A model generated the notes under the pieces. It was not told the origin of the DNA and ran no database searches. It worked only from the letters and a program-made list of their open reading frames with translations. Both the position numbers and the translations under genes were made by a program. A stretch of 64,000 nt of DNA from Bremia lactucae (taxonomy: Eukaryota > Oomycota > Peronosporomycetes > Peronosporales > Peronosporaceae): assembly GCF_004359215.1 (NCBI RefSeq), contig NC_090613.1, positions 297,166 to 361,165 on the forward strand, read 5' to 3'. This document shows, one piece after another, positions 1 through 62,230 of this stretch; the stretch's first letter is position 1; each line of letters begins with the position of its first letter.

Positions 1-310
1 AAATGAAAACTGTATTAATATAGTTAAGTGTCTCTTAATCTATCTTTGTAAATGCTGACTTAACTTTAATCTAATACTAAACATATAAATGAATTCTTAT
101 CTCTATCTTATCTTGTAACTCTCTTTGATTACTTCTACAGCTGATTAGTCTGCGGAATAAATACACATAATGGCCTATACCTATTTATGGATAAGAATCT
201 AGGATATTACTTTATAAAGTAATATCCTCCAAATATGATCTACCTTTTAGATAATATATTAATTAACAACCTTTAAGTGTTAATTTCATGTAACGATACA
301 CCCCGTTACA
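1..310 (-). repeat. Family-A LTR, partial (runs off the left edge)
   Basis: The sequence matches the family-A LTRs at 28741-29177 and 35869-36307 in the same orientation and ends with the family terminus CCCCGTTACA at 310. Its left part lies outside the window. On its right is the 5' region of the secreted-protein gene rather than element sequence, so this is either the 5' LTR of a minus-strand element lying to the left or a solo LTR. Confidence 0.85.
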
Positions 311-348
311 CTCCATCTAAGAGAAAATTGCCAGTCTCTATTATCCAG

Positions 349-1971
349 ATGTGGCATGGTAATTGCAATATCTTAAGCATGGTGATGCTTGTTGCGCACC
401 GACGTTGGTTCCTTTTCATGTGGTTGCTTGCTCTGGTGCTCTACATCAACACTACCACAGCGACGAATGCAGCAATTCGCGCTGTAGAAAACGTAGACGC
501 TAGTCGTTTTAAGATGCGCACGAATGCTACGATGGATAGAGGCAACAATGACACGGAGTCGAGAGATTTTCATAAACTCGAGACAAATTTAAAAGAGCTC
601 TTGGGGAGGGCTTTTATCCTCATGAAACAAGCAGGAAGAGACACGAATACCGTTAACTTTCTCGATCTCGCCGAGGCCACGGCGCAGCTTTCCCATGAGA
701 CCGCCGACGCTCAAAAAATCATCATGCAGAATACGTACCATAATCTAAAAGCACGCTATGGTGATTTGACGGTGGCATACTTTATCGCTGCAGCTAAATC
801 TAGACATGACATTGCTTCAGAACTTGAGCGCTGCCAGCTAGATGACTGGGCCTCGCAAGGACTCAAGCTACAGCAGGTCTTCTCTCTCTTGAATATAAAT
901 TCGGCGAACGGCAATGCCTTACTTAATCCATTGCTGCTCACGTGCCTCGCTTACGCCAAGAAGATTGAAAGTGTAACTTCGACGGATCTATTTTTTTTTT
1001 ATAACAGTCTAAGAAAGCGGTTCACCGATCTTGCATTCGCCAACATGGTCTCATCTTTAGACATTACTGATCATTCTATACTGAATGAGCTTGCTTTAAA
1101 CATGCGACACATGCTGATGGATGAATTGCGGAACGACGATCCGGTGGATTTATTTCATCGTCTTTTCAAGGAGGTTGACATGGGCAATATTATAAGAAAT
1201 TCGGCTATACTCATCTGGCTCGAGCTCGCATGGTCCCATAATGTTGATCCGTACCAGGTTCTATTGTTGGAATTGATAACTTCAAGAGACGCACATTATG
1301 TAGACATTGCTAAGATTGCAGCGGCGCCATACGAAGGTGAGGGCATTCGTGCCGTAGCTCTTAATCTGGAGATGGCGTTAGCACATCATTGGTACAAAGA
1401 GGACCTCAAGGATGAAGCAGTGTTTGCCATACTTGGACTCGACAAATTGACGGAAACGGATGTGATAAAAAGTCCATTTTGTGAAACGTGGTTTTATTAT
1501 TATTACTTGAAGAACTTCTATTCCTCCGTGGGCAATATTAAAATGCTGAAATCGTACTTCAAAGATGACATATTCGTATTGATTCTGTTTGCTTCAGTGA
1601 AACGAAATGACGATTTAGAGAACGCCGTTTATCCACTAATGGAAGAGGCTCTTATATCGAAAAACATCGATCCAGTTCAGCTATTCCGCATTTTCTGTTT
1701 AGATGAGGCACGTGGCCAGCTTTTTGAGAACTTGTTCTTTAAATTCTGGGCAAAGTATGTAAAGTCGGTTTACCCAGATGTGAATCCGGCCAAAATAATG
1801 GTCAACATTATGGTGAATGCAGGTTATAGTATTAATACTCTCGAGGAAATCATTGGTCGAGTAATCCACGCATCAAGCCGTGAATTGGAAAGCTCGGTCC
1901 CGTTATTGAGAAACGCGGAGTTTGCACCAGATTTGTGGGCGGTGGTATTAGAGGCAAAGCAAAAGCAATAA
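349..1971 (+). CDS. Secreted WY-like helical protein, copy 1 (candidate oomycete effector)
   Basis: Predicted secreted protein of 540 residues in one intronless frame. The open frame extends upstream to a GTG at 277, but that part is LTR sequence. I chose the ATG at 349 because the paralogue at 18288-19958 has the same Met-Trp-His start; ATGs at 379 and 385 are alternatives. A hydrophobic signal segment covers residues about 20-33, followed by NTTTATNA as a plausible cleavage region. No RxLR or EER motif is visible. The rest is alpha-helical with repeated W/L/Y spacing, for example DDWASQGLKLQQVFSLL near residue 167, which resembles WY/LWY modules of Peronosporales effectors; WY proteins lacking RxLR are known in downy mildews. 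Virulence function is inferred only. It is about 60% identical by eye to copy 2. A family-A LTR abuts its 5' side and a solo family-B LTR follows 0.33 kb downstream. Confidence 0.75.
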   Translation: MWHGNCNILSMVMLVAHRRWFLFMWLLALVLYINTTTATNAAIRAVENVDASRFKMRTNATMDRGNNDTESRDFHKLETNLKELLGRAFILMKQAGRDTNTVNFLDLAEATAQLSHETADAQKIIMQNTYHNLKARYGDLTVAYFIAAAKSRHDIASELERCQLDDWASQGLKLQQVFSLLNINSANGNALLNPLLLTCLAYAKKIESVTSTDLFFFYNSLRKRFTDLAFANMVSSLDITDHSILNELALNMRHMLMDELRNDDPVDLFHRLFKEVDMGNIIRNSAILIWLELAWSHNVDPYQVLLLELITSRDAHYVDIAKIAAAPYEGEGIRAVALNLEMALAHHWYKEDLKDEAVFAILGLDKLTETDVIKSPFCETWFYYYYLKNFYSSVGNIKMLKSYFKDDIFVLILFASVKRNDDLENAVYPLMEEALISKNIDPVQLFRIFCLDEARGQLFENLFFKFWAKYVKSVYPDVNPAKIMVNIMVNAGYSINTLEEIIGRVIHASSRELESSVPLLRNAEFAPDLWAVVLEAKQKQ

Positions 1972-3199: not shown

Positions 3200-4845
3200 C
3201 CGTGCAAAGCTCGAAGGAGAATCAATTCCGACCTAATGGAACCGTCTACTGTGGGGATTCGTCACCTCCTACTACCATTGGAGGTGTCTGGAATATGCCA
3301 TCTGTTGATGCCACTGCAGATGACGGTGACAAGTCACCTGCTAGACCAATTGTAGATGACTGGTCCAAGTCACCGTCATTGCTTGACTCAGTGGCTACAG
3401 TGAAGGCCGTCGGATCACCCGTGGCTAGTCCGTTAAACCTTTGGGCTCTAACGTGACTATTAAAGAGGCGATGACTAGGTTGTTGGATTCGTCGGACCTC
3501 TTTGGTGAGGAGTCATCTGATGATGACTCCATGGGCGACGATAACTCTGGTGACGTTAATATGCTTCACCAGGAGCAATGTGATCGTGCAGAGAAGAATG
3601 CTGCTAATGGTGCTAGTTTTTATCACCAGGAAAGAGTGATTCTAAGGATCGCTCCAGGAGCCATGTTAGCGTTAGCGTTAACAAGAGTCAACAGGAGAGG
3701 GGTCGCAATACGCTGCGACTCTCTCCTGCAAAGAAGCCCTGGTTGCCCTCTAAGGATGACCTAGCTCATTGGTTTGGTATGAGCAACGATCGATTCCATT
3801 ATCCGTTGCCGTTGTTCGACCCATTCAGGCTTCACAAGCCTGGTAAGGATGAAGCGGAATTCATCATCGATGCCTTTTCCGGCATCGGTGGTACACTTGT
3901 AAGCGGGCAAAGGATGTTACACCTTTGTTCCAAGCTTCGACAGCATTTGTACAGAATCTGCAAAACATAGGCTGCGAGCCTTGCTTGACAAACTGGATGT
4001 TTTCCGGGATTGGTTCGAAAAACGGACCGTAGTCGGTGCACGCTATAAGTTGCACCGTTTGCGTTGCCTCTCGTGGGGAGAATCATGCCCATGCTGTTTT
4101 AAGGGAGCAGGTCATGCCCCTTAAAAAAGCATTTTCCCTTAAAGACCCTCATTGGAAGATGCTCATCTCTTACGAAATGCGCGTAGGAATTGATTATACC
4201 CAATCCTTTCACGAGCGCGGGAAGCGCTCGTTCTCTGTAGACCCTCTGTCAAGGAGGATGGGTCTCGTCGTACTGTTAATCGAGACCCGGAACGTCCATA
4301 ATCAGTTGGGAACGAGGTTCCCAACTATAACGCGAGAATGGATACCCTCGTGAACGAACGAGATTTCTCGCTCGAACCCCTTTACCTCACGGTAATTTGA
4401 GAGGTGTTCAGCAAAAAAACGCTTTCCACCACTCGAATCCTTCACTGTATGTGGAGGGGGAGTAAAAATCGGGCTCGCCTCGGTTGACGAATCCGATTCA
4501 ACATCGTGATTTGAATCGCACCATTAACCGTCGCCGCGATTTAGCGGTGACAGTTGATAATGATTCTCGTCATAAGTTAAGATATTATGCGCAGGTTGCG
4601 ATTGATCAACTAGCGAACGAAAGGAAACATCAGTCCCTTTAAAACGAGCTGGTGACAGATCCTCAGAAGATACTTCTTTGGAGGAAATAGTGGATCGACT
4701 GGTTCATGAGAATTAGACTCTGTCCCGAGACCATAAGGCTTCTGCTCAGGGCCATCAGGCTTTGGCGGATGCTCTAGACCGTTCCGGTGTAATCCAGAAT
4801 CGGAAGATGCCTCGTACAGGCGGAGACACCCAACATAAAACGTAG
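3200..4845 (+). pseudogene. Antisense gene (aORF) of element B1, degenerate
   Basis: Decayed plus-strand copy of the unrecognised aORF, opposite to pol. The N-terminal part starting MATNKSV in B2 and B3 is missing. Recognisable are a Ser/Asp-rich acidic linker (3441-3560), the core with FEKRTVVGARYKLHRL near 4014-4062 followed by a Cys-containing CLSWGESCPCC stretch, and a C-terminal helical part ending in a basic RNRK-type tail near 4795-4845. Several frameshifts separate the blocks. The last 0.6 kb lies opposite the pol C-terminus and chromodomain. Coding status rests on conservation with the other copies, not on this one. Confidence 0.6.
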
Positions 4846-18287: not shown

Positions 18288-19958
18288 TCAAGCTTCAGAC
18301 AACGTAACCAGCCTTTTTTTTTTTGTTTTTTGCTTTGCCTCCACCACCGCCCATAACTCTGGTGCAAACTCTGCGTTTCTCGATAACGGGATGGAGCTTT
18401 CCAATTCATGGCTCGGAGTGTAAATCACTCGGCCAATAATTTCTTCGAGATAATCGATCGAATAATTTGCATTCTCCATAATGTTAATCATTTCTTCTGC
18501 CGGATTCAGATCTGGGTGACAGACAGACTTTACGAACTTTGCCCAAAATTTAAAGAATAAGCTCTCAAAAAGCTTAAAACCTACCAAATTCAAGTCGAAA
18601 AAGTAGAATAGATCGACTGGATCAATTTTTTTAGATAAAAGAAACTTTTCCGCGATTAGAAAAAGTTTATCCTCGAATTCGACGTCCCTTTTAGTTACAG
18701 CAAACAAAATTAAAAACTCCGCATCTGTAAGCTCCAAGTTCAACATGCCAAATCTCTTTATTGCAAAAGGCACTTTTTCCGTTGACATGTAGAAACGAAA
18801 CCACGTCTCACAGTGTGGACTCAACACCACATCCTCTTCCTTCAATTTTTTAAGTCCTAGTATTTGAAATACTGCTTCGTGCTTAACTTTTCGTCTTGTC
18901 CAATCTAGCAGTAACTCGTTTTCCAATCCAAGAGCAAAGACTCGCGTGTCCGCATTTTTTTGTGGCGCAGCTACTATTCTGGCAATGTCTGAATCCTCTG
19001 CATGTTTATATTCCCTCATTTGCAGGTATAGAATTTGATACGGATGAATGTCTCTTATTTCTCTTTGAAATGATAAGGCGAGGTAAATCCAGATGTGAAT
19101 AGCCGGTGTATTAAATATTTCGTCAACGTCAACGTTCTCAAATAGACGACGAAATAGATCTACCGGTTCAACGATGCGCCATTCATCCAACAGCATTTCT
19201 CGTAAGGCCAGTGCAAGCTCGTTCACTATAGAATGGTCATCGATGTCTAGTTGTGCCACCATGTTGGCGAAATCAAGATCGGTCAACCGTTCTCTTAGAC
19301 TGTCATAAAGAAGTTTAACATCCGTCGAAGGTCCTATATTAATCTTTTTTGCGTAAGCGAGACAAGTTAATAGCAACCGTTTGTTTAAGGCATTGCCGTC
19401 CACCGCATTAATTTTCAAGAGAGAGAGGATCCGTTCTAGTTGAAGTCCTTGCGAGGCCCAGTCATCTAGCTGGCAGCGCTCAAGTTCTGCAGCAATGTCA
19501 TGCCTAGTCTTAGCTGCAGCGATAAAATTTGCCACTGCCAAGTCATCATAGCGTGCTTTTAGATTACGGTACGTATTCTGTATGATGGTTTTTTGAACGT
19601 CGGCGGTCTCATGCGAAAGCTCCGACGTGGCCTCAGCGAGATCGAAAAAGTTGACGGCATCCGTTTCTCTTCCTGCTTTTTTCATTAGGAGAAAAGCCTT
19701 CCCCAAGAGCTCTTTAATATTTTTCTCGAGTTTATGAATATCTCTCGACTCCGTGTCATTGCTGCCTCCATCCATCGTAGCATTTGTGAGCATCTTAAAA
19801 CAACAGGCGCCTTGGTTTTCTATAGCATTAGGTGCTGCATTCATCGCTGTGGTAGTGTTAATGCAGAGCACCAAAGCAAGCCACCACAGTAAACGGAACC
19901 AACACCGGTGCGCAACAAGCTTCACCTTGCTTAAGTCATTGCGGTTATTGTGCCACAT
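18288..19958 (-). CDS. Secreted WY-like helical protein, copy 2 (candidate oomycete effector)
   Basis: Intronless gene of 556 residues from the ATG at 19958 (Met-Trp-His start shared with copy 1). An in-frame ATG at 20123 would add 55 residues before the signal segment, which would weaken secretion. The signal-like hydrophobic run WFRLLWWLALVLCI is followed by NTTTAMNA. Helical modules follow with W/L/Y spacing, for example DDWASQGLQLERILSLL. No RxLR or EER motif. The C-terminal tail TKKKRLVTLSEA is longer and more basic than in copy 1, after an A-rich stretch at 18310-18330. The whole reading frame is open, so it may be expressed. A family-A LTR lies 0.4 kb upstream, head-to-head. Role in host interaction is inferred from family resemblance. 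Confidence 0.75.
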   Translation of the reverse strand: MWHNNRNDLSKVKLVAHRCWFRLLWWLALVLCINTTTAMNAAPNAIENQGACCFKMLTNATMDGGSNDTESRDIHKLEKNIKELLGKAFLLMKKAGRETDAVNFFDLAEATSELSHETADVQKTIIQNTYRNLKARYDDLAVANFIAAAKTRHDIAAELERCQLDDWASQGLQLERILSLLKINAVDGNALNKRLLLTCLAYAKKINIGPSTDVKLLYDSLRERLTDLDFANMVAQLDIDDHSIVNELALALREMLLDEWRIVEPVDLFRRLFENVDVDEIFNTPAIHIWIYLALSFQREIRDIHPYQILYLQMREYKHAEDSDIARIVAAPQKNADTRVFALGLENELLLDWTRRKVKHEAVFQILGLKKLKEEDVVLSPHCETWFRFYMSTEKVPFAIKRFGMLNLELTDAEFLILFAVTKRDVEFEDKLFLIAEKFLLSKKIDPVDLFYFFDLNLVGFKLFESLFFKFWAKFVKSVCHPDLNPAEEMINIMENANYSIDYLEEIIGRVIYTPSHELESSIPLSRNAEFAPELWAVVEAKQKTKKKRLVTLSEA

Positions 19959-20359
19959 CTGAATAATCGAGACTAGCAACTTTCTGTTATATGGAAGTTC
20001 AGTTTTGTCTCTTGTTGTAAGGGAACGCTGGGACAATCTGCTAGCATTCATTCTGTTTGTTATCGGTTTCTCAAATAACAAGCAGTAATACCTGAATAAC
20101 TTCCGCTGTTGCATTTCATGCAAATTATAATCAGAATCTTACCGTCAATGGTGCTGCCTACAATTATCGTTTTAGCGAATAATTTAGCTCCTACAAAGGA
20201 ATTAAGGCCGTCGCAGAGGTGCGAAAGACGTGCAGCAAGGACCATTGATGCATAGTCAATGACGTTTTTGGACATCTAATTTAGGACACAATTTTACGCA
20301 TGGTTAATGATCCAGCTTCCGGAACGTCCTCATTAACGTGAGCGTAAAAATACCCAGCT
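19959..20359 (-). promoter_or_regulatory. Upstream region of secreted-protein gene 2
   Basis: About 400 bp between the chosen start and the family-A LTR. It is retained only for copy 2; in copy 1 the LTR cuts in at 310/311. It contains a 71-codon open frame (20060-20275, minus; starts MSKNVIDYASMVLAARLSHL) that I do not recognise. It may be an older exon remnant or chance. The promoter of copy 2 probably lies here. Confidence 0.4.
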
Positions 20360-25622: not shown

Positions 25623-26680
25623 ATGGCAGTGCGCACAAATCGCACTGGAAAAGACAAAACAAATGAGTCAGCAGAAGAATCTTCGCTGGCTCGAGAATCA
25701 TTATTCCGATTCGTACAGGATTATTTTGCTAACGCAGTGCACCGGCAGAAACGGAACGCAGACAAACATGGAAGAGCAAATGTTCTTTTATTCAAAATAA
25801 ATGATCTAGTACTACCGTCTACAGTAAATTTACCTAAGCGCGTAGTCACTAATGTGGGTAGCAGTAAACTACTATCCAAGCTTATTGGGCCATTCCGTGT
25901 TCTGTATCGCAGAGGCAATGCGTACACAATAGAATTGCCACGAACGATGCTAACGCATCCTACGTTTAACGTTGGTCTGATCTACCTGTACCATCAGTAT
26001 GCGGTCTCTTCCGTCGACGGATCTGACCAGCCCTTTCAAGATCCTTTAAGTATCTTGTGATCACTAGCCAGACTCTCATGTTGAGTGTGGAGATTCTCAT
26101 GCCGAATCCGAAGTTCCTCGAAATCGCGACGTGCTGACGAGAGCTCTTCACGAAGAGCGTAATACTTCCGTTCGTACTCTAACATTGCGTACGCATGTTT
26201 TAAACGGTCTTCCAACCATTCGATACGGTGAGTCTGCACCCCTGTTCCAAGAAGTGACGAATACCGCTCAAGTGATCAAGACCGTCCTCCAATACATGGA
26301 GGTAGTGGTCGAGTTTGTCTATCTTCGACTCTAGATCCAACTCATAGGTCGGATCTAATATTCCTTCCTCCACCATAACCAATGGTGATTTCCTACGGTG
26401 GTCAACGTTTCCTTGTGGAACGTTGTTAAACCACCGTGATATGAAGGGGCAGCGAACGAGTTGTCTGGTTCGCTGGCGAGGTTATCCACCTTCGCATGAC
26501 AGCTGGGAACGAGGTTCTCAGCTGGTTGCTGACGTTGAGGGCCCCGTCAGTCAGTATGACGAGACGCATCCGATGGATTAGAAGATTCATCAGAAAACAC
26601 GCGCCCTGGCGCGTGTAAATCGATTGCGAAACTGGCTATCGCATCGCCCATCTCGATTGAGATGCGAGTCCATCCCCAGG
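25623..26680 (+). pseudogene. GPY/F module, linker and chromodomain of A2 pol
   Basis: SKLIGPFRVLYRRGNAYTIE and HPTFNVGLIYLYHQYAVSSV (25853-26005), linker, then an intact chromodomain CLVRWRGYPPSHDSWERGS at about 26461-26517 and QYDETHPMD ending at a TAG near 26579. Chromodomains steer integration to modified histones in chromoviruses. The last 0.6 kb lies opposite the aORF. Confidence 0.75.
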
Positions 26681-27692
26681 GCGAAGAAAGGGAATAAACA
26701 TCCCTTTCCTCATTTCGTGTTGTTGACACAACACGGACAGAGATCACTCCACGTAAGGCATAGAAGTCCTGCATCACGAGACAACGATGCAATTTAAACC
26801 TTGCACCGGTTGAAGTTAACAACAACGATGCAATTTAAACCTTGCACCGGTTGAAGTTCGTTTCTCAAACTTAACGCAAATCGCGTTAAGTCTTTAAAAC
26901 CAGGCTTCGCGTCCAATGTCTTTGCATTGGACGCGAATTAATGCGTTCCAGGATTGCATCAACGAGAGCTTATTTGGCTTGTTGTTGCCACTATAACATC
27001 GATGCCTAAGAAAAGCATCGAGATAAATATCTTCCTCAGCGCGGAAGTTTTTCGCGCTGGGATCAAAAAGGCCATGCAGCTTTGTCTCAATAAATAAGAC
27101 ATATTTATTGTGAGGAGTAGTCTCTCCAGCCAAGCTACTAACTAGCCGTTCTGATAAAAGTCACCGCTTTTCTCAGGGGCAAGACGAGACATTTTATTGT
27201 CTACGCTCCCCTGAGTGGTACCCGATGAAGCGGGTGTACCACAAGAACTTTAATTACGGTGGCTTACGTCATCGTCATTACCACGCAAAGAGATAAGTGC
27301 GGGTGACGGCACGGGAGACGGTGCTGGCGATGAGAATTCATCCTCATCGTCGGAATAAAACATGCGATAGCTAATGCTATTAGCACGTCTATCCAATTGA
27401 GCCCCTCATTCGAAGGCTCATAGTCAGCCGCCTGACGACATTCACGCAACTGTTCTGTTCTCCCCGAGTCGACCATTTCGTCCGACTCGCATTCGTAGTT
27501 GACCTCTAAAGAGGGGTCGTATTCACGTGGTGTATCACCACGTGCACCCACAACATTTAGAGTTGCGGGAGAAGATGACACTACGGCAGACGGAACGTCT
27601 GCCGCAAGAGACAATAATGCGTCGCCCGCGGCTGCATGAACCGCAGCCGAAGGCGCCGCACTATTTGCATACCGCATGGACTTGTTAACCAT
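25966..27692 (-). pseudogene. aORF of family-A element A2
   Basis: Starts MVNKSMRYANSAAPSAAVHA at 27692, 115 bp inside the 3' LTR. The N-terminal 143 codons are open in one frame (27264-27692). Further blocks: acidic SDDEDEFSSPAPSP-type region in another frame, GARFKLHR core (about 26790-26800), ESKIDKLDHYLHVLEDGLDH coiled coil (26200-26382), ERKYYALREELSSARRDFEE (26036-26239) and a basic tail IRRRKRPHTDGTG ending at 25966. A 41-bp direct duplication at 26781-26858 disrupts the core. Function unknown. Confidence 0.65.
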
Positions 27693-27807
27693 GCGATAGA
27701 ATTTAAAATGATGGTTCTGACCAATCAACATCGCTTTAATAAAGTGGTATTATAGTGACCACTCTCTTAATGCCAGTCAGAGTAATTGTCGTTTAAGGGT
27801 GAAGTGA

Positions 27808-29177: not shown

Positions 29178-29293
29178 TCACCCCTCCCTTAAATGACAAT
29201 CACTCTGACTGTCATTGAGTAGAGTGATCACTAAAAAAACACTTAATTGATACGGTGTTGATTGTTCAGAACTATCATTTTTAATTCTATCGC

Positions 29294-30979
29294 ATGGTTA
29301 ACGAGTCCATGCAGTCAGCGAAATGTGCGTAACCCTCGACTGCGGTCCATACAGCCGCTGGCGACGCAGACATTTTGTATCATCTTCTCCCGCAACATTA
29401 AATGTTGCGAGTGCACGTGGTGAGTCGCCACGTGAGTGCGACCTCGGTCGACTATGAATGCGTGTCTGACGAGGTGGCCGACTCGGGGAGAACAGAACAG
29501 TTGCGTGAATGTCGTCAGGCGGCTGACTATGAGCCTTCGAATGAGGGGCTCAATCGAATAGACGTGCTAATAGCATTAGTTATCGCATGTTTAATTCCGA
29601 CGATGAGGATGAATTCTCATCGCCAGCACCGTCTCCCGTGCCGTCACCCGGTATTATTTCTCTGCGTGGTGATGACGATGGCGAAGCCATCGTAATTAAA
29701 GTTCTTGTGGTACACCCGCTTCATCGGGTACCACTCAGGGGAGCGTAGACAATAAAATGTCTCGTCTTGCCCCTGAGAAAAGCGGTGACTTTTATCAGAA
29801 CGGCTAGTTAGTAGCTTGGCTGGAGAGACTACTCCTCACAATAAATATGTCTTATTTATTGAGACAAAGCTGCATGGCCTTTTTGATCCCAGCGCGAAAA
29901 ACGTTCGCGCTGAAGAATTTTTTTGTCTCGATGCTTTAATCATCGATTGTACAGTGGCAACAACAAACGAGATAAAACTCGTTGATGCAAGCCTAGAGCG
30001 CATTATTCGCAATGTCAAAGAGATTGGACGCGAAGCTTGGCGTTAAGTTTGAGAAACGAACTCCAACCGGTGCAATGTATAAATTGCATCGGTTGTCTCG
30101 TGAGGTAGGACTTGTATGCCTCACGTGGGGTGATCCCTGTCCGTGTTCAGCTGACAACACGAAACGAGTGAGGATATGTTTATTCCCTTTCTTCGCCCAG
30201 GGGAAGGGCTCGCATCTTTATCGAGATGCGCGATGCGATTGACGCTTTGCAATCAATTTACAAGCGCCAGGAGTGCGTGTTCTACGATGGACCTTCAAAT
30301 CCATCCGATGGGTCTTGTCATACTGACGGACCATGCCCTAAACGCCAGGGAACGAGGCTCTCAGCTGCTGTCATGCGAAAGTGGTTAACCGCGCCAGCGA
30401 AGCAAATAATTCTTCCGCTGCTCCTTCACATCTTGGTGTCGTAGAATACGTTCCACAAGTAAACGTTGACCACCGTGGGAATCCACTAATGGTTGTGGTG
30501 GAGTAGGGAAAATTAGATCTATCGTGTGTGTCGGATCTAGAATCGAAGATCGACAAACTTGATTGCTACCTCCATGTAAAATTAGATCTATCGTGTGTGT
30601 CGGATCTAGAGTCGAAGATCGACAAACTTGATCGCTACCTCCATGTGAAGGAGAACTTTGGTCACGAGCGCGGTAAATGTCACTTGTTGGAGCAAACGGT
30701 GCAAGCACACTTTTTTAAACGGTTGGAAATTCGTTCGAAGAGTGCGTACTTAATGTTGGATTACGAGCAGAGATATCACGCTTTTCGTGATGACCTGTCG
30801 TTAGCTCATCGCGGTTTCGAGGATCTTTGGACCCGACATGAGATCTCCAGATTCAGCATGAGAATCTGGCTCGTGACCACAAGATTTTTTTAGGGATTCT
30901 TGAAAAAGGTGGTCAGATTCGTCCTCAGAAGAAACCGCGTACTGATGGTACGGGCGGAGCCAACCAACGTAAAACGTAG
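29294..30979 (+). pseudogene. aORF of family-A element A3
   Basis: Start MVNESM at 29294, 117 bp from the LTR. Blocks: DYECVSDEVADSGRTEQLRE (29440-29510), a frame with SDDEDEFSSPAPSPVPSPG (about 29595-29655), a middle part (29816-30046) with NVKEIGREAW, FEKRTPTGAMYKLHRLSREV and CLTWGDPCPC (30012-30242), EMRDAIDALQSIYKR (about 30217-30262), coiled coil SDLESKIDKLDRYLHVKENF, EQRYHAFRDDLSLAHRGFED, and the basic tail IRPQKKPRTDGTGGAN to a TAG at 30979. A 69-bp in-frame duplication lies at 30511-30648. The chain is broken by frameshifts. No homologue is recognised. Confidence 0.65.
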
Positions 30980-31593: not shown

Positions 31594-32211
31594 TTACGTG
31601 TTCTGTCTGACCATCTGTCTCTGATCAGAAGTTGACATAGTCAGCCGTGTTCCGAGCGATCGGAACACGGATTGCCAAGAGCTCCGCCGTAAACCGTGGA
31701 TCTCATCCGAGAACAGTTCGCGGGGTAGACCGTGGAGTTTTAACACCATGCCGTTATAGACACGGGGACAGCCCAGAGCCGTGATCGACTCTGGGACTGC
31801 AACAAAATGTACCATCTTGCTGAATCTGTTTACAAAATTAACTTTTCCATTAATTTTGTGATCTTCTTTGGGAAATCCGAAGACGAAGTCCATAGATACG
31901 GACTGCCAACATTCTGCCGGAAGTGGTAGAGGTTGGAGAGGTGGACGGGATGAAGAAATAGGCTTCACTCGTTGACATATCTCGGAGGAACGAATGTACT
32001 TGCGCACGAGCTGGTACTGTCGGGGCCAGTAAAAGTCGCGACTTACTGTGAGATAAGTTTTCTTACGTCCACGATGCCCGCTTGTTGGTGCATAGTGACA
32101 CTCATGCATGGTGCATAAGCGCAAATATTGTGAGTTGGGACGGCGGCACGTGGAGTGTCGCCGGCAGCGGCTGTGTAATGGAATAAGCCGTTGCGTGTTG
32201 TGCATCATCAT
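31594..32211 (-). pseudogene. Integrase of A3
   Basis: A 205-codon open stretch with the zinc-binding region MHECHYAPTSGHRGRKKTYL and ICQRVKP, FYWPRQYQLVRKYIR, the core start MDFVFGFPKEDHKINGKVNF, and KLHGLPRELFSD before the second catalytic block, which is altered. The third block near the start of the C-terminal helix follows in a shifted frame. Damaged but among the longest integrase frames in family A here. Confidence 0.78.
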
Positions 32212-32982: not shown

Positions 32983-33831
32983 CTAGAACTGACCAGTCAG
33001 TAATTGCCTTGATCTTTTCGGGATCAGGGCGCACGCCATGTTTTTTGACGATGACCCACAGAGTGCTATTACGCTTCCAGCGAATATACACTTCTTGAGA
33101 TTTGCGTACAGCTTATGCTTTCGGATAAGTATAAGAACCTGATGAATGTGAGTTTCATGAGCTTCCACGTCCGTCTTTCCGTTCATGGCCGGGCTATGGA
33201 CGAATACATCGTCAAAATAACTCGGTGCGAATTCTCGCACCGGTCTCAACAGATTTGTTACGCATCTGTTGAATGTTGCAGGGGCGTTACTAAGCCCCTG
33301 AGGCATCACTAGCCACTCCCAGAGCATCCCAATGGGAGTGCTTACTGCTGTGTACGGGATGTCCCGTTCACGCATAAGGATTTGATAGAACCCATCCATC
33401 AGATCCATAGACGAAAAGATCGTACTCTTAGACATACCATCTATGATTACGTCTTTTCTAGGTATCGGCGTTTGAGCCGGTACTGTTGCAGCATTCAGTT
33501 TGTTGAATGCGTGCACCATCCGCCACACTCCTGTGGCCTTTCGCACACAGAAGGTCGAAGAGCTATGTAGGGAGGTTGACTCCCTCACATGGCCCGCTTT
33601 TAATAGATTGATAAAGAATTTATCGATCGCAAGTACTTGTTCACGAGGCAGTGGCCACTGTTTCATGACACAATACATCGAGCCCGGTTTGAGCTTGATC
33701 TCATGTCGAGTGCCTTTATCCTCAGGCAACTCGCATGAAACTGTTTCAGGGAATACATCCCTGAATTCAATTAAATCCTTGTAAAGGGCTTGTCTTAAGT
33801 GACTTCCAGGATTGAGTAGTATATCTCTCAT
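32983..33831 (-). pseudogene. Reverse transcriptase of A3 (longest RT frame in the window)
   Basis: A 282-codon open stretch spanning most RT blocks: EDKGTRHEIKLKPGSMYCVM, KATGVWRMVHAFNKLNAATV, SIFSSMDL-type DGFYQILMRERDIPYTAVST, LWEWLVMPQGLSNAPATFNR, and the active-site box FAPSYFDDVFVHS. The thumb end near 33000 is damaged. This is the clearest evidence that the element family is Ty3/gypsy. Confidence 0.85.
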
Positions 33832-34639: not shown

Positions 34640-35800
34640 AACTTTTGTCAAGAGATTTGCAAATTCTCTTGAGGTTGCTGGATCAGTAGGGCGTTGCGCC
34701 CCTACTGACCTCGACCGATTTTGGCGGTCCGCCTCGCTGTTGGGATTTCGCAACAACGTCGGACCCGCGACCGTTGCCCTTTTTGGCACACGGTCCAAAA
34801 TTACGTTCAGTACCTTTCGGTGCTGGGCGTGGGGCACTACACTCATGAGCGTAGTGGCCTAACTTTGACAGCGATTGCATTTCTTAAATTGCTTATTGTT
34901 CGAAAAGCGAGGTTTCTCACTTTCGATATAAGAGAGGTTCATAGGTTCTGGACCTCCAAACTCGTGTCGTCTTGGAGGACGATATGATGACGAACTAGCT
35001 TGAGCCTGTCTCGAGCTAAAGTTCCCTTGTTCCGCAACGGATTTTGTTTCTACAAGCGTATCCAGTTCCAAGCGGAACAGGTGGGTCTTTACGGGACCAT
35101 CCGTAAGACCTTGCATGAACACCGTAATTAACGTGTGTTCATGAACAAGGTTATTTGTTATACAACTCGCTAAGAGTCGTTTGTGCTGGGCATATGCGTG
35201 AACATCACGCTTGCCTTGCTTGAGTTTCAGAAGCTCTGAACGAGCTCTGAACTCAGCCCTTGGCGGTTCAAACGTCTGTTTGAGCCGGGCTTTGAAAGCC
35301 TCTAGCGTCTCAAAGACGTATGGGTCGCGCAACTTAAGGCCCAATGCCCAAGTTTTGGCACGACCTGCCAAATTTGATTGAGCGAATGCGACTTGCATTT
35401 GCTCGTCGACGATGTGACGTGCCCTTATGGCATCGTCCAACTTGACAAACCATCTTAAGAGGGAGTCTTCTTCGACTCCCCTATACTTAGAGATGTCAAT
35501 CTTTAAGGTTTCGGGACGACGCGTGTGCGTCATCCCAGGTACAGGGTCTGTACCTGTTGTAACCTCAACAGTTCTGCCTGTTGAGAGCCTTGCTGATTCA
35601 GCAAGGCTACCTTTTCATTCGTCAAGTTCATGTTGTATGAACTTGGCGATGGCTGAATGGAGGGCATCTCTGTCCAAACCGGACAGCATGGCCAAGATGG
35701 CATCGTTCCCTACGGTTGAACTCATTCGTTCGACCGCAGTCCTATCTATGTCACTTAGAAAGGAGTAGCTATCATTCGAAAAGTGATGTGAATTCACATT
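34640..35800 (-). pseudogene. Gag of A3
   Basis: The N-terminal part at 35615-35797 has DRTAVERMSSTVGNDAILAM. The core is a 224-codon frame (34859-35533) with MTHTRRPETLKIDISKYRGV, AQSNLAGRAKTWALGLKLRD, FRARSELLKLKQGKRDVHAY and MQGLTDGPVKTHLFRLELDT. The knuckle CNRCQ is followed by a stop, and GHYAHECSAP is in another frame (34683-34880). Best gag core in the window. Confidence 0.8.
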
Positions 35801-36307: not shown

Positions 36308-36422
36308 TCACCCCTCCCTTAAATGACAATCACTCTGCTGTCATTGAGTAGAGTGATCACTAAAAGAACACTTGATTGATACGATATTAATTGTTCAGAA
36401 CTATCATTTTTAATTCTATCGC

Positions 36423-38022
36423 ATGGTTAACGAGTCCATGCAGTCAGCGAATAATGCGGAACCCTCGACTGCGGTACATACAGCCTCTGGCGACGCAGAC
36501 ATTTAGTATTATCTTCTCCCGCAACATTAAATGTTGCGAGTGCACGTGGTGAGTCGCCACGTGAGTGCGACCTCGGTCGACTATGAATGCGTGTCGAACG
36601 AGGTGGCCGACTCGGGAAGAACAGAAAAGTTGCGTGAATGTCGTCAGGCGGCTGACTATGAGCCTTCAAATGAGGGGCGCAATCGAATAGACGTGCTACT
36701 AGCATTAGCTATCGCATGTTTAATTCCGACGATGAGGATGAATTCTCATCGCCAGCACCGTCTCCCGTGCCGTCATCCGGTCTTATTTCTCTGCGTTGTG
36801 ATGACGATGGCGAAGCCATCGTAATTAAAGTTCTTGTGGTACACCCGCTTCATCGGGTACCACTCAGGGGAGCGTAGACAATAAAATGTCTCGTCTTGCC
36901 CCTGAGAAAAGCGGTGACTTTTATCAGAACGGCTAGTTAGTAGCTTGGCTGGAGAGACTACTCCTCACAATAAATATGTCTTATTTATTGAGACAAAGCT
37001 GCATGGCCTTTTTGATCCCAGCGAAGAATTTCCGCGCTGAGGACGAATTTTATCTCGATACTTTTCTTAGGCATCGCTGGGATAGTGGCAACAACAAGCG
37101 AAATAAGTTCGCTTTGATGCAAGCCTGGAACACGTTTATTCGCAATGTCAACGACATTGGACGCGAGGCCTGGCTTTAAAGACTTAACGCGATTGGCGTT
37201 AAGTTTGAGAAACGAACTTCAACCGGTGCAAGGTTTAAATTGCATCGGTTGTCTCGTGATGCAGGACTTCTATGCCTCACGTGGGGTGATCCCTGTCCGT
37301 GTTGGGTCGACAACACGAAATGAGTGAAAGGGGATTTTTATTCCCTTTCTTCGCCCTGGGGAAGGAGCGATGCGATAGCCCGTTTGCAATCGATTTACAC
37401 GCACCAGGGCGCGTCTTTTCCGATGGACCTTCTGATCCATCGGATGGGTCTCGTCATACTGACGGACGGGGCCCTCAACGTCAGCAACCAGCTGAGAACA
37501 TCGTTCCCAGCTGTCATGCGAAGGTGGATAACCTCGCCTGCGAACCAGACAACTCGTTCGCTGCCCCTTCATATCACGGTGTTTTAACAACGTTCCACAA
37601 GGAAACGTTGAACACCGTAGGAAATCACCATTGGTTGTGGTGGAGGAAGGAATATTAGATCCGACCTATGTGTCGGATCTAGAGTCGAAGATAGACAAAC
37701 TCGACCACTACCTCCATGTATTGGAGGACGGTCTTGATCACTTGAGCGGTATTCGTCACTTCTTGGAACAGGCGGTGCAGACTCACCGTATCGAATTGTT
37801 GGAAGACCGTTTAAACGTGCGTACGCAATGTTAGAGTACGAACGGAAGTATCACGCTCTTCGTGAATAGCTGTGGTCAGCTCATCGCGGCTTCTAGGATC
37901 TTCAGACCCGGCATGAGAATCTGGTTCGGGACCACAAGAATCGTTTAAGGTTTCTTGAAAAGGGTGGTCAGATCCGTCCTCGGAAGAAACCGCGTACTGA
38001 TAGTACGGGTAGAGCCGATTAA
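36423..38022 (+). pseudogene. aORF of family-A element A4
   Basis: Start MVNESM at 36423, 115 bp from the LTR. Blocks: DYECVSNEVADSGRTEKLRE (36531-36824), KNFRAEDEFYLDTFLRHRWD and NVNDIGREAWL (36976-37179), FEKRTSTGARFKLHRLSRD-type core (about 37207-37260), VVEEGILDPTYVSDLESKID and HVLEDGLDHLSGIRHFLEQ (37631-37834), ending in a basic RKKPRTDSTG tail and a TAA at 38022. The coiled-coil part changes frame near 37812. Same order as A1-A3. Confidence 0.65.
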
Positions 38023-50111: not shown

Positions 50112-50671
50112 CTAGTTCTTCCCCAGTAGACCGCCCGGCCCCACTCGGCGTTTCCCGCACCGTACAGCTTTCTGGTATAAGGTGGGATTGATGCTTCGAG
50201 CTTTGCGCGAATTGCGCAACGGACAAGCCGGGCGCAAGTGCTTAGTGCTTTCTCGCATATAACATCTACGATGTTTGAATGCTATTCCACAGCTTTTCTT
50301 CTCCTTACTAATAGACAAATCTGATGCGCTCGACGGGCTTTCCAATATTTCTGCGTACCAACGCGAGAGGACTTAAAGTCGAACTCAGCGCGTAACCCCA
50401 TGGCAATTGCCGCTTCTAAAGTAACGGGATGAGATTGGTACAATTCCGTTTGGGCAACCCCCGCATTAAGGTCTTCCATTATGAACGAATAATTTAACCA
50501 CTTCTTGCCCTCGGCCTTGATGTATAGCGGCAAAAAGAGCTCTTAACTCCTGGGCGTAGTCTCCTAGGATCGGTCTACCCTGACGAGCCGCTAAATATCG
50601 TGATCGTGTGCGAGAAATCTGATTAGATGGGACAAACATGCTAGTCAGATGATGTTTTGGCAAATCACACC
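50112..50671 (-). pseudogene. Family-C gag, C-terminal half (inverted piece)
   Basis: Minus frames: VGCDLPKHHLTSMFVPSNQI, SRYLAARQGRPILGDYAQEL (50466-50684), then VAQTELYQSHPVTLEAAIAM and GLRAEFDFKSSRVGTQKYWK (50282-50533). This is a typical oomycete gypsy gag core. Its N-terminal half is found at 51815-52080 on the plus strand, consistent with an inversion between them. Confidence 0.75.
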
Positions 50672-51300
50672 CCACGAGAGGCAAGGTAAACCTGCCTACT
50701 TGGACGAGCGGTGCAACTTATAGGGTGCACCAACTAAGTACCTGTTTTCAATCCTGTCACATGCCATAACCAGTTTGTCAAACTAGGTCTCGCAGCCTAC
50801 GATTTGCACATTCTGTATGAATGCTCCCGAAGCGTAAAACTAAAAGGAGTTGCATCCTTAGCACGCGTCCAAGTGTAACATCGATGCCAAAAACGCATCG
50901 ATGAAGAATTCGTTTTTGTTGTCACCAAACTGTGAAGTCTGGATGAGTGACGACGGGATCTTATACCGCTCGTTGGTCATATACCGTTCGTTGGTCATAG
51001 CAGACCAACGAACCAAGTTGCCCTTTGCAGGCAACCAAGACTCTTTTCGGGAGCGAACCGCAACGAATTGCGGTCTCCGTTCCTTTGGTTAATGCTAAGT
51101 TGCAGACTAACATTCTGTTGAAGTGATCTTTACAATCCTTCGTTCCTGGTGGTACATTTTAGCATTCCCGGTACGGGGGCTCTTTAGATCGGAGTCATTA
51201 CAAGATGACTCCTCATCAATATAGTCCGAGGAATGGAACATCTTGGAGATTAATATCTGATCTCTCTCGTCTTAACCCACCGTTTTATGACAAAATTGCT
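50672..51300 (-). pseudogene. Family-B-type aORF fragment (inverted piece)
   Basis: The minus strand aligns to the B1 and B3 aORF: an acidic part near 51200, the block before WLPSK (about 51020), and a core ending in a SCLSWG-type stretch at 50672-50700. It stops exactly where the gag fragment starts. The continuation (a CCFKGAGHAP equivalent) is at 52081 on the plus strand. Confidence 0.65.
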
Positions 51301-52889: not shown

Positions 52890-54621
52890 ATGGCGACTAA
52901 TAAGTCTGTGCGCGTGGCCCGTGAGGCCGCAAAGCTGACAGCTGCACGGTACAGTGCAGCTGTTGGTAATGAAATTTATCAATGGACGCTAATACGTCTA
53001 CTGCGGGGAATACGTCACCTACTCCCATTGGAGGTGACGATGACAAGTCATCTGCTACACCGACTGTAGGTGAGTGGACCAAGTCACCGGCATCGCCGGA
53101 CTCAGTGTCTACTGTAAAGGCCGCTGGATCACCCGGGGCCGAGTCCGTTAAGCCTTCAGGTTCTAACGTGACAACTAGAGGGGTGATGACGAGGTTATTC
53201 GACTCGTCGAACCTCTTTGGTGAGGAGTCATCATCCGATGACTCCGTGAGCGATGACCACTCTGGTAACGTTAGCATGCGTCACCCAGAAAATTAAGTGG
53301 TCGCGAGGGGAAGAGTGCTGCTGGTGGTGATAGTTTGCATCACCAGGAAGGGAGTGATTCTAGAGATCGCTCCAAGGGCTAAGTTAACGTTGACGTTAAC
53401 ATGAGCCAACACGAGAGGGATCGCAATACGTTGCGGTTCGCTCCTGAAAATCGGCCTTGGTTGCCCTCTAGGAGAAACCTCATTCGTTGGTCTGTATGAA
53501 CAACGATCGATGTCATATTCCGCTATTCAACTCATCCAGGTTTCACATGCCCGGTGAGGATGAGACGAAATTCCTCACCGATGCCTTTTCCGGCATCGGT
53601 GGTACTCCTCTAAGCTGACAAAGGATGTCAAACCTTTGCGCTAAACTTCGACAGCTTTTATACAGCATGTACAAAAATAGGCCGTGAGGTCTGGCTTGAC
53701 AAGCTAAATGCTTTCCGTGAGCGGTTCGAGAAACAGACCGTAGTCGGTGCATGATATAAGCTGTACTGTTTGTCTTAGGAGACAGGGATTCCTTGCCTCT
53801 CGTGGGGGGACCCATGCTCCTGCTGTTTTAAGGGTGCAGGTCATGCCCCAAAAGAAAGCATATTTCTTAAAGATCTTCATTGGAGAACGCTCATCTCTTA
53901 CGAGATGCGTGAAGGGATTGAGAACCTCCAATCCTATTACGAGCGCGGAAAGCGCTCGTTCTCCGATGGACCTTCTGTCAAGGAGGATGGGGCTGTTCGT
54001 ACTGCAAGACGAAACCTGGAACGTCCAACATCAATTGGGAACGAGGCTCCTAGCTATCATGTGAGGGTGGATACCCTCGCCAACGAACGAGATATCTCGT
54101 TCGAACTCTATTTACCTCTGGGTGGTTCGAAAAGCTTTCAACAAGAAAATGCTTCTCACCACTCGAATCCGTCAATGGATGTGGAGGGGGGGGGTCGGGT
54201 TCGCCTCGTTTGACGAACCCGAATCAACATCATGATTCGGATCACGCCCTTTATTTTTTGAGAAAGGATTCTGATCACGAGCGATCCCGTCGCCGCGAGT
54301 TAGCGGTGATGGCTAATAATGTTTCTCGTGACCAGTTGGTAGATTAAAATTGTGTGCAGGTTGCGACGGATCAACTGGCGAACGAGAGGACACATCAGTT
54401 CCTTCAAAACGAGATGGTGACAGCTCGTCAGAAGATCATTCCCTTGGAGAAAAAATGAGTGGATCGTCTGATTCAAGACAATCAGAGTCGGTACCGAGAA
54501 GATACGGCTTTGGCTCGGAACCATGAAGCTTTGGTGAATGCCCTAGACTGTTCCGGTGAAATCCGGAACCGGAAGAAGTCTCGTACTGATGGTACGGCGG
54601 AGACGCTGAACATAAGACGTA
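52890..54621 (+). pseudogene. aORF of family-B element B3
   Basis: Start MATNKSVRVAREAAKLTAAR at 52890, 147 bp from the LTR. Then, after a frameshift, PTVGEWTKSPASPDSVSTVK and LFGEESSSDDSVSDDHSGNV (52982-53296), a block near 53297-53480, the core FEKQTVVGA with CLSWGDPC (about 53730-53815), EMREGIENLQSYYER and SFSDGPSVKEDG (53905-54213 frame), helical DRLIQDNQSRYREDTALARN, and the basic IRNRKKSRTDGT tail (54459-54621). The most complete family-B copy. Product not recognised. Confidence 0.68.
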
Positions 54622-54740
54622 GGATGCGTACGCATACTAAGAGGCAGCTCGATCGTGTACACATTGCCTTGGCGATGTAGTACACGAAACGGGCCGATAG
54701 ACCTGGGTAGTAATTTATTACTGCCTACATTCGTCACTAC
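53985..54740 (-). pseudogene. GPY/F module and chromodomain of B3 pol
   Basis: KLLPRSIGPFRVLHRQGNVY and HPTSYV (54543-54737), then the chromodomain RYLVRWRGYPPSHDS with a TAG inside it and EPRSQLMLDVPGFVLQYEQ (about 53990-54105). It lies opposite the aORF. Confidence 0.68.
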
Positions 54741-60362: not shown

Positions 60363-62153
60363 TTATTCTCGAGCATCGTCGACAAACATAATCGACAGTG
60401 TTGAGTCCTTATACTTTGCTTTGGGCCCACCGTTAATCACGCGGTGGTAAGTGCTAGAACCTTGTCCTTTTACACCTGCACGACCCGTTGTCAAATACAA
60501 GAACAAACATGCGGCCACCAAGAGTAAGAAACTAAAATTCCAGCCAAGAGGGAGTCCAGCACTTAGCTGTTCGGCCAGCAATTCCGATGCGATGGAAAAC
60601 GTGACTTTGCGTTGAAGCGCCTCCAGATACAAAAATGCACCAGTGAGCCAAGCCACGAGTTCGGCTGGGTTGCCATGTTCTACCTCATCATTTGATCCGC
60701 GACCTGATAGAACTGGCTCCTTCTCGAAACGATCAACGAAATAAATACGATGATCCGTATCTTGAACGCCAAGTTGTTCGAGTAGCACAATGGTATAGCA
60801 CAAGTCGAAGCATAGAATGTTTAATGAAGAGCTACTACTTTCGACCGTCGAATTCAAAGTCACATTTGCGGCAGCAGAGACATGAGTCAGTGTGGCCCCA
60901 CTGACAATATCTTCATAAGGCAGCATACATAGTGTAATAGCAGCTTTACGAAGAGACCAAAGCGTTGGATTCGGGAGAAGCAGTGGCTCCACATGTGATT
61001 CCTGACGCTTGTCTTTTATAGATTTCAACACGCAATGGGTCCTTAACACAGCCTCTCGAAGCACTCCAGATGCGTAAAACGATTCGCCACCTTGAAGCTG
61101 TGGAGCGCTGCCTATAAAGCAAAAGGTCTCCGGTGGACAATTCGCATTGCTTGAAAGAACATGTGACTTGAGTAGCGTCAGACACTTGACAGCATCTCCT
61201 GTGCCTTTCAGCGTCACATTGACACCCTCGACCATCAAAACATGATCTTTGAAGAAACACGGATGCTCCAGAGAAGTCAAAGCGCCGTGTTTTTCCTCAG
61301 GATGAATCAAAGCCTGCAGAGTTGCATGTCGTCCAAAGCCTGGATATTCCCGCCCATAAAAGTCGCTCATGTTTAGCGCCACATTCACTTGACGCTGTCG
61401 TTTTCCGCGTCTCCATCGCTCTCGCACGTCAAAAATCATTTCAACCGCATCCGAGTCGGATTCAGAGCTCAACTTACCAACTTGTCCCCCTGCGTCCACG
61501 TGCATTACCCCAAAGACTTCCACTTGCCCGGGGCTGAGCGACGGAGCCACTTTTCCAGAGAGATAATTCGTTCCTACTACGTAAAAGTACAGGCGCCAAG
61601 TAGATGGGACAACACGCAAGTCGCCACTCGAAATGACACTTTCATGGTCGTCTTGAGGCTTAATAGATGGCATATTGAGTGCAAAAGGAAAATGTTTGTC
61701 ACGTTTTGCACGAACTCGTAGCCAATCAAGGCGTTCGATAACACGTGTGGCCACAGTCTTGTCCTGTGAAGTGGAATCAGGGGTTGTCTCGGACTCCGCC
61801 ATAACAAAATGTGCAAAACACAGCGATGGATCGACCCGGTTAAGTAGCCACTTCACTGCTTGGTCGAACGCTGGCCGCAAGATCTGATAAATCTCATCAG
61901 ACCGATACTTATCTTTTAGTGTCGCATCGAAAACGTCCTCTATAATCGAAGGCAATAGAGGAAAGTGGTCGTAAACGTTAATACCGTCCTGCTCGTAAGC
62001 GTTTTGAAGGACTAATACACGTGTGCGTGTCCTCGCTAGTACAACAAACACACGGCAATGCGCACGCGCTGGTGGTGGCATGGGCGCATCCTGCACAGCC
62101 AGAGTGCGGCCCAGCACCGTCAACAACAGCAGCAAAAGCGCTCCTTGCTTCAT
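60363..62153 (-). CDS. GDA1/CD39-like (apyrase-like) single-pass membrane protein
   Basis: 596 residues, one exon. N-terminal signal peptide (about 1-19) and one C-terminal membrane helix (WNFSFLLLVAACLFLYL, 538-554), so mostly lumenal or extracellular. Apyrase-like blocks in the family order: GVMHVDAGGQVGKLSS (215-230), resembling the glycine-rich fourth apyrase region; EHPCFFKDH (296-304); GSAPQLQGGESFYASGVLRE (348-367); LCFDLCYTIVLLEQLGV (447-463); AWLTGAFLYLEAL (501-513). The first region reads LARTRTRV (39-46) where active enzymes have a DAGS-type motif, and the catalytic Glu of the third region near NYLSG (196-200) is not obvious. It may be inactive or highly diverged. Family members hydrolyse nucleoside di- and triphosphates. 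Divergent with the next gene. Confidence 0.6.
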   Translation of the reverse strand: MKQGALLLLLLTVLGRTLAVQDAPMPPPARAHCRVFVVLARTRTRVLVLQNAYEQDGINVYDHFPLLPSIIEDVFDATLKDKYRSDEIYQILRPAFDQAVKWLLNRVDPSLCFAHFVMAESETTPDSTSQDKTVATRVIERLDWLRVRAKRDKHFPFALNMPSIKPQDDHESVISSGDLRVVPSTWRLYFYVVGTNYLSGKVAPSLSPGQVEVFGVMHVDAGGQVGKLSSESDSDAVEMIFDVRERWRRGKRQRQVNVALNMSDFYGREYPGFGRHATLQALIHPEEKHGALTSLEHPCFFKDHVLMVEGVNVTLKGTGDAVKCLTLLKSHVLSSNANCPPETFCFIGSAPQLQGGESFYASGVLREAVLRTHCVLKSIKDKRQESHVEPLLLPNPTLWSLRKAAITLCMLPYEDIVSGATLTHVSAAANVTLNSTVESSSSSLNILCFDLCYTIVLLEQLGVQDTDHRIYFVDRFEKEPVLSGRGSNDEVEHGNPAELVAWLTGAFLYLEALQRKVTFSIASELLAEQLSAGLPLGWNFSFLLLVAACLFLYLTTGRAGVKGQGSSTYHRVINGGPKAKYKDSTLSIMFVDDARE

Positions 62154-62230
62154 GAAGAACTAAAATCGAATTTTTTGTACACCACATTAAAATGATGTGT
62201 CTAACACAATCATATCTAAACCAGCTTCGC
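62154..62230. promoter_or_regulatory. Very short divergent intergenic region
   Basis: Only 77 bp separate the two start codons (38 bp if the glycosyltransferase starts at 62192). It must hold both core promoters, or the promoters overlap the coding regions. No TATA box or clear oomycete initiator is obvious. Confidence 0.45.

What the first reader, a model, noticed from the sequence alone, without database searches (positions are those of the whole stretch)
29178..30979. Two retrotransposon families share an unrecognised antisense gene (aORF) next to the 3' LTR
Between the chromodomain and the 3' LTR of every family-A and family-B copy that keeps this region, the strand opposite to pol carries the same protein blocks in the same order: start MVNKSM or MATNKSV, an acidic Ser/Asp linker, the FEKRT--GARYKLHRL core with CL-WG--CPC, the EMR-I--LQS-Y-R block, a coiled coil, and an IR-RKKPRT tail. 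LTR bodies of A and B are unrelated, yet the EMR block reads EMRDAIDALQSIYKR in A3, EMREGIENLQSYYER in B3 and EKREGIDSLQFFYEL at 52.15 kb, so selection acted on this strand's protein. Established parallel: HTLV-1 HBZ is an antisense gene started in the 3' LTR, and some plant LTR elements have extra antisense ORFs. I know of no described oomycete equivalent. Function (chromatin, RNA binding, copy control) is speculation.
Basis: partly seen in the sequence, partly recalled or inferred. Interest (0 to 1): 0.9.

Follow-up and report, generated by a model that had tools for sequence, protein, structure and literature searches.

The report
Antisense gene in oomycete retrotransposons
A large family of jumping genes in downy mildews carries a second, backwards-running gene for a roughly 560-residue protein that partly shares its DNA with the element's own enzyme gene; it has been kept by selection, but what it does is unknown.

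Summary
At the 3' end of Ty3/Gypsy chromodomain elements, the strand opposite to pol encodes a protein family of about 520-590 aa. The named copy is decayed (14 stops, 17 frame changes). So are 33 of 34 near-complete copies examined, but 12 of 55 are intact over the part outside pol, 43 of 115 genome matches to the N-terminal half are stop-free, and an intact 559-aa homologue (P0001) is 99.4% identical to copy L050 over 352 codons. In 69 non-redundant copies the antisense frame has the lowest dN/dS of six frames in 300 of 300 bootstraps, outside pol (0.64) and in the coiled coil opposite the pol linker (0.61; pol 0.93). Opposite the chromodomain pol is better conserved (0.72 against 0.81), not decisively. 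Homologues occur in Peronospora and Hyaloperonospora, and 16 of 18 inspected still permit a chromodomain on the opposite strand. No Pfam, PDB or fold match. The class (antisense accessory ORFs) is known from plants and Botrytis; this is a new family and variant, in oomycetes, with about 700 nt of conserved overlap with pol. Most likely role: a nuclear regulator of the element (inferred).

The parts
29294..30979 (+). antisense ORF (aORF) of the named family-A copy, decayed
   Evidence: blocks and ends; 14 stops, 17 frame changes against P0001
29275..29293 (+). leader just before the ATG, beginning with an INR-like TCATTTT
   Evidence: YCAYTYY in 50 of 59 family-A-type copies, nearly all starting 19 nt before the first ATG
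29596..29649 (+). acidic Ser/Asp/Pro linker; the matching part of homologue P0001 is predicted disordered
30048..30146 (+). end of the helical core with the H..C..C..C set (nearly invariant in homologues)
30223..30273 (+). EMR..LQS.Y.R block
30513..30704 (+). coiled-coil segment with a 69-bp tandem duplication in this copy
30917..30976 (+). basic C-terminal tail, NLS-like K-[KR]-x-[RK]
30388..30486 (-). pol chromodomain opposite the aORF
   Evidence: the corresponding pol tail in L065:2669-3298 hits PF00385 Chromo, E 1.6e-10
30221..30286 (-). C-terminal end of pol opposite the aORF
30939..30974 (-). integrase tail FYVGWLRPYHQY opposite the aORF C-terminus
31594..32211 (-). integrase zinc-binding domain of the element
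   Evidence: PF17921
32983..33831 (-). reverse transcriptase
   Evidence: PF00078
34859..35533 (-). gag
   Evidence: PF03732
15714..17281 (-). family-A aORF copy
26120..27764 (-). family-A aORF copy
36348..37893 (+). family-A aORF copy
3620..4454 (+). family-B aORF copy, partial
50618..51286 (-). family-B-like aORF copy, partial
52890..54623 (+). family-B aORF copy (start block and body taken as one copy)

Best explanation
These chromodomain Ty3/Gypsy elements carry a genuine third gene on the strand opposite to gag-pol. It starts about 115 nt inside the 3' LTR edge, reads back through the 3' internal region, and ends opposite the integrase tail, so that about 230 codons are read on both strands. 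SHOWN: the frame is conserved as protein among copies of this genome and in related downy mildews; the part opposite the chromodomain is predicted disordered, while the part opposite the pol linker (coiled coil) is conserved in the antisense frame rather than in pol. INFERRED: it is transcribed antisense from a promoter inside the element (INR-like site just before the ATG in family A); the protein enters the nucleus through its K-[KR]-x-[RK] tail, oligomerises by its long coiled coil, binds nucleic acid or a partner through a helical core with a conserved H/C/C/C set and an acidic N-terminus, and acts in trans on the element's own copies as an accessory regulator of expression, chromatin state or integration.
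For: dN/dS of the antisense frame is lowest of six in 300 of 300 bootstraps in aa 1-340 (0.64, 95% 0.58-0.69) and in aa 450-559 (0.61, 0.53-0.69, against 0.93 for pol); 0.35 in the closest pairs. 17 of 60 copies are stop-free over the unique region in this frame, 0 of 60 in each other frame; 12 of 55 are free of stops and frame changes over aa 1-327. Homologues in Hyaloperonospora arabidopsidis, Peronospora effusa and P. matthiolae plus unnamed ENA contigs. Opposite-strand chromodomain compatibility is kept in 16 of 18 inspected homologues, against 1 of 462,000 positions in shuffled sequences. Core model pLDDT 85.8, pTM 0.80; helix 429-536 mostly at pLDDT 88-97 and a disordered stretch 349-416. 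Basic tail motif in 56 of the 58 proteins picked as having a tail, of 146 held then. INR-like site in 50 of 59 family-A-type copies. Nuclear location and own promoter are reported for the plant counterpart, Grande GENE23 (PMC7264820).
Against: No RNA data: antisense transcription is not shown. The INR-like site is absent before the one family-B start inspected, and its identity (0.93) is only moderately above that of the leader (0.85). No domain or fold match gives a function. Opposite the chromodomain the antisense frame is not clearly selected (0.81 against 0.72 for pol; it is below pol in 64 of 300 bootstraps). Most copies were fetched by protein similarity, which favours conserved ones; in nine copies chosen by DNA or lying in the window the signal is weaker (aa 80-340: 0.71 against 0.81-0.96). 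33 of 34 near-complete copies in this genome are broken, so the values mix selection with decay after insertion.
Confidence: 0.6

Rival explanations
1. The antisense protein is a structural or integration cofactor (nuclear import of the pre-integration complex, or a partner of integrase and the chromodomain) rather than a regulator.
For: In the copies examined it lies opposite the integrase tail and chromodomain; it has an NLS-like tail and a predicted coiled coil. PMC7264820 raises a nuclear-import or accessory role for the plant counterparts.
Against: No interaction evidence; expression together with pol is not shown.
Confidence: 0.22
2. Copy control by antisense RNA or dsRNA: the transcript matters, the protein is incidental.
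For: An antisense transcript over the pol end would form dsRNA; small RNAs in both senses from P. infestans Gypsy elements are reported (PMC3522703, passages).
Against: Selection falls on the amino-acid frame, including the region outside pol, and protein homology along the length spans genera. An RNA-only role predicts no frame preference.
Confidence: 0.06
3. By-product: openness and similarity come from pol coding on the other strand and from shared descent of DNA.
For: In the chromodomain part pol selection is as strong or stronger; a mirror frame (-1) also shows reduced dN/dS, as the geometry of the frames predicts.
Against: Codons 1 to about 325 lie outside pol and show a clear signal; the coiled-coil part is conserved in the antisense frame and not in pol.
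Confidence: 0.02
4. The protein's main role is outside the element, for example a captured host gene or a host-facing protein; one Hyaloperonospora homologue is labelled RxLR effector candidate.
For: Source label of P0052.
Against: The label is a source's, not a test; opposite-strand chromodomain compatibility ties most inspected homologues to the element; among the rows listed no relative is named as an ordinary cellular protein, apart from the 'Core-binding (CB) domain' label of P0006, which no search here supports.
Confidence: 0.08

Closest known systems
aORF-3R of plant LTR retrotransposons (maize Grande GENE23, rice RIRE2, Silene Retand ORF4, PvRetro13) and fungal Boty (PMC7264820, parts 1 and 2 of 3 of the text read; Retand also in PMC11963269, passages)
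   Same: Antisense ORF at the 3' end of an LTR element, conserved across copies and related species, function unknown; nuclear location and own promoter reported for Grande.
   Different: No TRP28 (PF04195) or other Pfam match above its cut-off; in oomycetes; about 700 nt overlap pol, whereas the review describes the plant ORFs as lying between pol and the 3' LTR.
HTLV-1 HBZ (details recalled; mentioned in passages of PMC11963269, and HTLV antisense promoter in PMC7264820)
   Same: Antisense gene of an LTR element; acidic N-terminal part and C-terminal coiled coil (HBZ's layout recalled).
   Different: No bZIP match; start codon and INR-like site inside the element and not in the LTR; no sequence relation found by Pfam.
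Chronos Ty3/Gypsy elements of oomycetes (PMC5348765, section 5 and passages)
   Same: Oomycete Ty3/Gypsy with a chromodomain at the end of pol.
   Different: No second (archaeal-type) RNase H found in the two copies examined; the held main text of the paper has no occurrence of 'antisense'.

Membership tests
aORF-3R (antisense accessory ORF near the 3' LTR) | ORF antisense to gag-pol at the 3' end of the internal region | tested here: met
aORF-3R (antisense accessory ORF near the 3' LTR) | present in most copies of a family and conserved like element proteins | tested here: inconclusive
   conservation seen; the share of pol copies that carry it was not measured
aORF-3R (antisense accessory ORF near the 3' LTR) | transcribed antisense from its own promoter (shown for Grande) | not testable with these tools
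   only an INR-like site in 50 of 59 family-A-type copies
Retand-type TRP28 protein | TRP28 domain PF04195 | tested here: not met
   0 of 36 proteins of alignment A1 match it at E <= 0.1
HBZ | bZIP domain | tested here: not met
   no bZIP family among the 19 families matched by any of 36 proteins at E <= 0.1
HBZ | antisense promoter in the 3' LTR | tested here: inconclusive
   ATG and INR-like site lie inside the element; the transcript start is not known
Chronos | chromodomain at the pol end | tested here: met
   PF00385, E 1.6e-10 in L065
Chronos | second, archaeal-type RNase H after the Ty3/Gypsy RNase H | tested here: not met
   in two window copies only PF17917/PF17919 in the RNase H pieces, no match in the pieces towards integrase, and about 290-300 nt between the two domains, short for another RNase H; both copies are decayed
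Core-binding (CB) domain of tyrosine recombinases (source label of P0006) | sequence or fold similarity to CB domains | tested here: inconclusive
   no Pfam match for P0006 and no significant Foldseek hit of the core; a missing fold match does not exclude it

The most novel reading that the evidence does not exclude
Downy-mildew chromodomain retrotransposons are obligately two-stranded: a nuclear regulator encoded on the opposite strand is needed for their success, and its gene and pol have been locked together over about 230 codons since before the Bremia-like, Hyaloperonospora and Peronospora lineages parted, with structure alternating between the strands (chromodomain against a disordered stretch, coiled coil against a pliable pol linker). 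It would be an independently evolved counterpart of the antisense regulator genes of deltaretroviruses.
Probability: 0.35. Interest if true: 0.82.

Novelty: new variant of a known kind. Interest (0 to 1): 0.66.

Why it matters
It adds a protein family without known relatives, in a clade where none was listed in the literature searched, to the small set of antisense genes of LTR elements, with direct evidence of selection on the frame and with dual coding over about 700 nt that is kept across genera. It gives a natural case for measuring how two strands divide constraint. It explains large sets of 'uncharacterized' downy-mildew proteins, and it makes the question of what antisense genes do for LTR retrotransposons testable in elements that are abundant in these genomes.

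Tried and rejected

Considered and rejected: an ORF open by accident of pol codon use; a sense-strand gene in the mirror frame (-1), whose dN/dS outside pol is higher than the antisense frame's in every divergence bin and whose unique region has 3.27 stops per 100 codons and no stop-free copy of 60. Long open frames in the genome tables were not taken at face value: many are assembly gaps. The 608-aa frame of L065 has, by eye, a locally out-of-frame stretch in the coiled coil and runs past the usual stop, and the last part of the 607-aa frame of L063 is out of frame with its homologues.

Full report
What is there. The window lies in a 115.9-Mb, 220-contig assembly, whose size and many N gaps resemble the Bremia lactucae SF5 assembly described in PMC6570648 (115 Mb with 24 Mb of gaps; passages seen); that identity is inferred, not shown. 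The element of the finding is a Ty3/Gypsy retrotransposon on the minus strand with gag (34859-35533), reverse transcriptase (32983-33831), RNase H, integrase (31594-32211) and a chromodomain. This copy is broken (14 stops and, by the script's count, 17 frame changes).

Other copies. A search of the same genome with the 76-aa core gives 150 matches, the number scored. The N-terminal half (358 aa) gives 115 matches, 43 of them without a stop over the match, counted by eye from the table. Some of the longest 'open frames' in those tables are assembly gaps read as open. Among 34 copies with at least 530 of 559 codons, one (L065) is free of stops and frame changes by the script's count; its 608-aa frame has a locally out-of-frame stretch by eye and runs past the usual stop. 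Over the part outside pol (aa 1-327), 12 of 55 copies are free of both. The intact 559-aa homologue P0001, from an ENA contig, has the same residue as copy L050 at 350 of 352 codons, so intact recent copies exist in this or a very near genome.

Homologues elsewhere. A protein search found 59 homologues, a profile search 166 and a third 191. Named sources among the rows listed are Peronospora matthiolae, P. effusa and Hyaloperonospora arabidopsidis; others are unnamed ENA contigs. Forms that reach both ends in the alignment are about 520-593 aa; those that keep the end share a basic tail. Two P. matthiolae clusters of 529-aa proteins hold 524 and 1,335 member sequences (members may include repeats between sources).

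Overlap with pol. In L057 pol ends opposite aORF residue 327 (P0001 numbering) and continues opposite the rest, about 230 codons; L065 agrees. Pol is read in the phase in which its third codon position faces the second position of the antisense codon. To ask whether this layout holds in species for which no DNA was at hand, I tested whether each homologue's residues permit, by any codon choice, a chromodomain signature (RWxGYxxxxxSWEP with some alternatives allowed) on the opposite strand in that phase. 16 of 18 inspected homologues do, at the corresponding place by eye; the two that do not are P0010 and P0020. In all 59 proteins held then there were 31 such sites in 21,968 positions; shuffled versions of the 18 gave 1 in 462,000 positions. 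A signature of the integrase tail is also permitted at the last codons of 7 of those 18; the P. matthiolae proteins stop a few codons earlier or are shorter.

Selection. Codons of 85 copies were tabulated against the intact homologue; 69 remained after near-duplicates were dropped. Pairs between 33 clusters were pooled and clusters bootstrapped. Outside pol (aa 1-340) the antisense frame has dN/dS 0.64 (0.58-0.69), the other five 0.75-0.96. In the coiled coil and tail (aa 450-559) it has 0.61 (0.53-0.69), pol 0.93 (0.85-1.02), the other four 0.70-1.04. In both parts it was lowest in 300 of 300 bootstraps. Opposite the chromodomain (aa 365-440) pol has 0.72 and the antisense frame 0.81, with overlapping intervals; the antisense frame is lowest in 60 of 300. 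Closest pairs give 0.35 outside pol. Position by position, differences gather at the third antisense position outside pol and in the coiled coil, but not opposite the chromodomain. Stops per 100 codons outside pol are 0.74 in this frame and 2.5-10 in the others; 17 of 60 copies have none in this frame, 0 of 60 in each other frame. In the coiled-coil part both the antisense frame and pol are open (0.87 and 0.93). Bias: most copies were fetched by protein similarity. In nine copies chosen by DNA or lying in the window the order is the same but weaker (aa 80-340: 0.71 against 0.81-0.96).

Protein anatomy. The full model (mean pLDDT 63) shows a disordered acidic N-terminus, a confident helical core (about 171-270, less sure to 290), a disordered stretch 349-416 that lies opposite the chromodomain, and a long helix 429-536 mostly at 88-97. 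The core alone folds with pLDDT 85.8 and pTM 0.80, and H117, C127, C134 and C137 of that piece are conserved in 90% or more of 38 sequences, a possible metal site. No match in PDB or viral model libraries reaches E 0.001. Of 58 proteins picked as having a tail, out of 146 held, 56 carry K-[KR]-x-[RK] near the end, which resembles a classical nuclear localisation signal (recalled).

Expression signals. The LTR edge lies near 29179 and the ATG at 29294. Just before the first ATG, 50 of 59 family-A-type copies have a match to the oomycete INR (YCAYTYY, PMC3599244; passages seen) within 60 nt, where 0.085 per 60 nt is expected. The copies are related, so this is one inheritance more than 50 observations; local identity is 0.93 against 0.85 for the leader in 56 of those 59 copies, and the one family-B start inspected lacks it. 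An internal promoter is therefore likely for family A but unproved.

Place among known things. PMC7264820 (parts 1 and 2 of 3 read) describes antisense ORFs between pol and the 3' LTR in Grande, RIRE2, Retand, PvRetro13 and Boty, with nuclear location and an own promoter for Grande. This is the same kind of gene. It differs in its protein family, its host clade and the long conserved overlap with pol. It is not shown to share ancestry with any of them. Chronos elements (PMC5348765) share the chromodomain, but the second RNase H that defines them was not found in the two copies examined.

Mechanism, with steps marked. Shown: the protein is under purifying selection, and the layout is shared between genera. 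Likely: antisense transcription from inside the element. Inferred: nuclear entry, oligomerisation, and action on the element's own copies as a regulator (confidence 0.6 for the whole), with an integration or import cofactor as main rival (0.22).

Noticed in passing
window 277-1971 (+) and 18288-20123 (-): Two large ORFs (564 and 611 aa) sharing an inverted 918-nt stretch, 81% identical; the first has a weak, below-cutoff WY-domain hit (PF22748, E 6.8e-5), so they look like paralogous WY-effector-like genes.
   Followed up: no
window 60363-62153 (-) and 62192-63832 (+): Two long divergent ORFs (596 and 546 aa) 38 nt apart; the first has no Pfam match at E 0.01, the second was not searched.
   Followed up: no
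window 30509-30646: A 69-bp tandem duplication (97% identical), a whole number of codons, inside the coiled coil of the named copy: a 23-residue repeat.
   Followed up: partly
window 20.36-20.80 kb, 59.6-60.0 kb and 206-310: Further relatives of the family-A LTR away from the aORF copies listed, perhaps solo LTRs or other elements.
   Followed up: no
homologues P0052 and P0006 (Hyaloperonospora arabidopsidis): Public labels 'RxLR effector candidate' and 'Core-binding (CB) domain-containing protein' sit on relatives of this retrotransposon protein and may be mis-annotations.
   Followed up: partly
homologue clusters P0060 and P0151 (Peronospora matthiolae): 524 and 1,335 member sequences of 529-aa proteins suggest a recent burst of one element family and an inflated gene set.
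   Followed up: no
G000:C107:985682-985888 and 989231-989437: Two aORF copies with the same score in opposite orientation about 3.3 kb apart, perhaps an inverted duplication.
   Followed up: no
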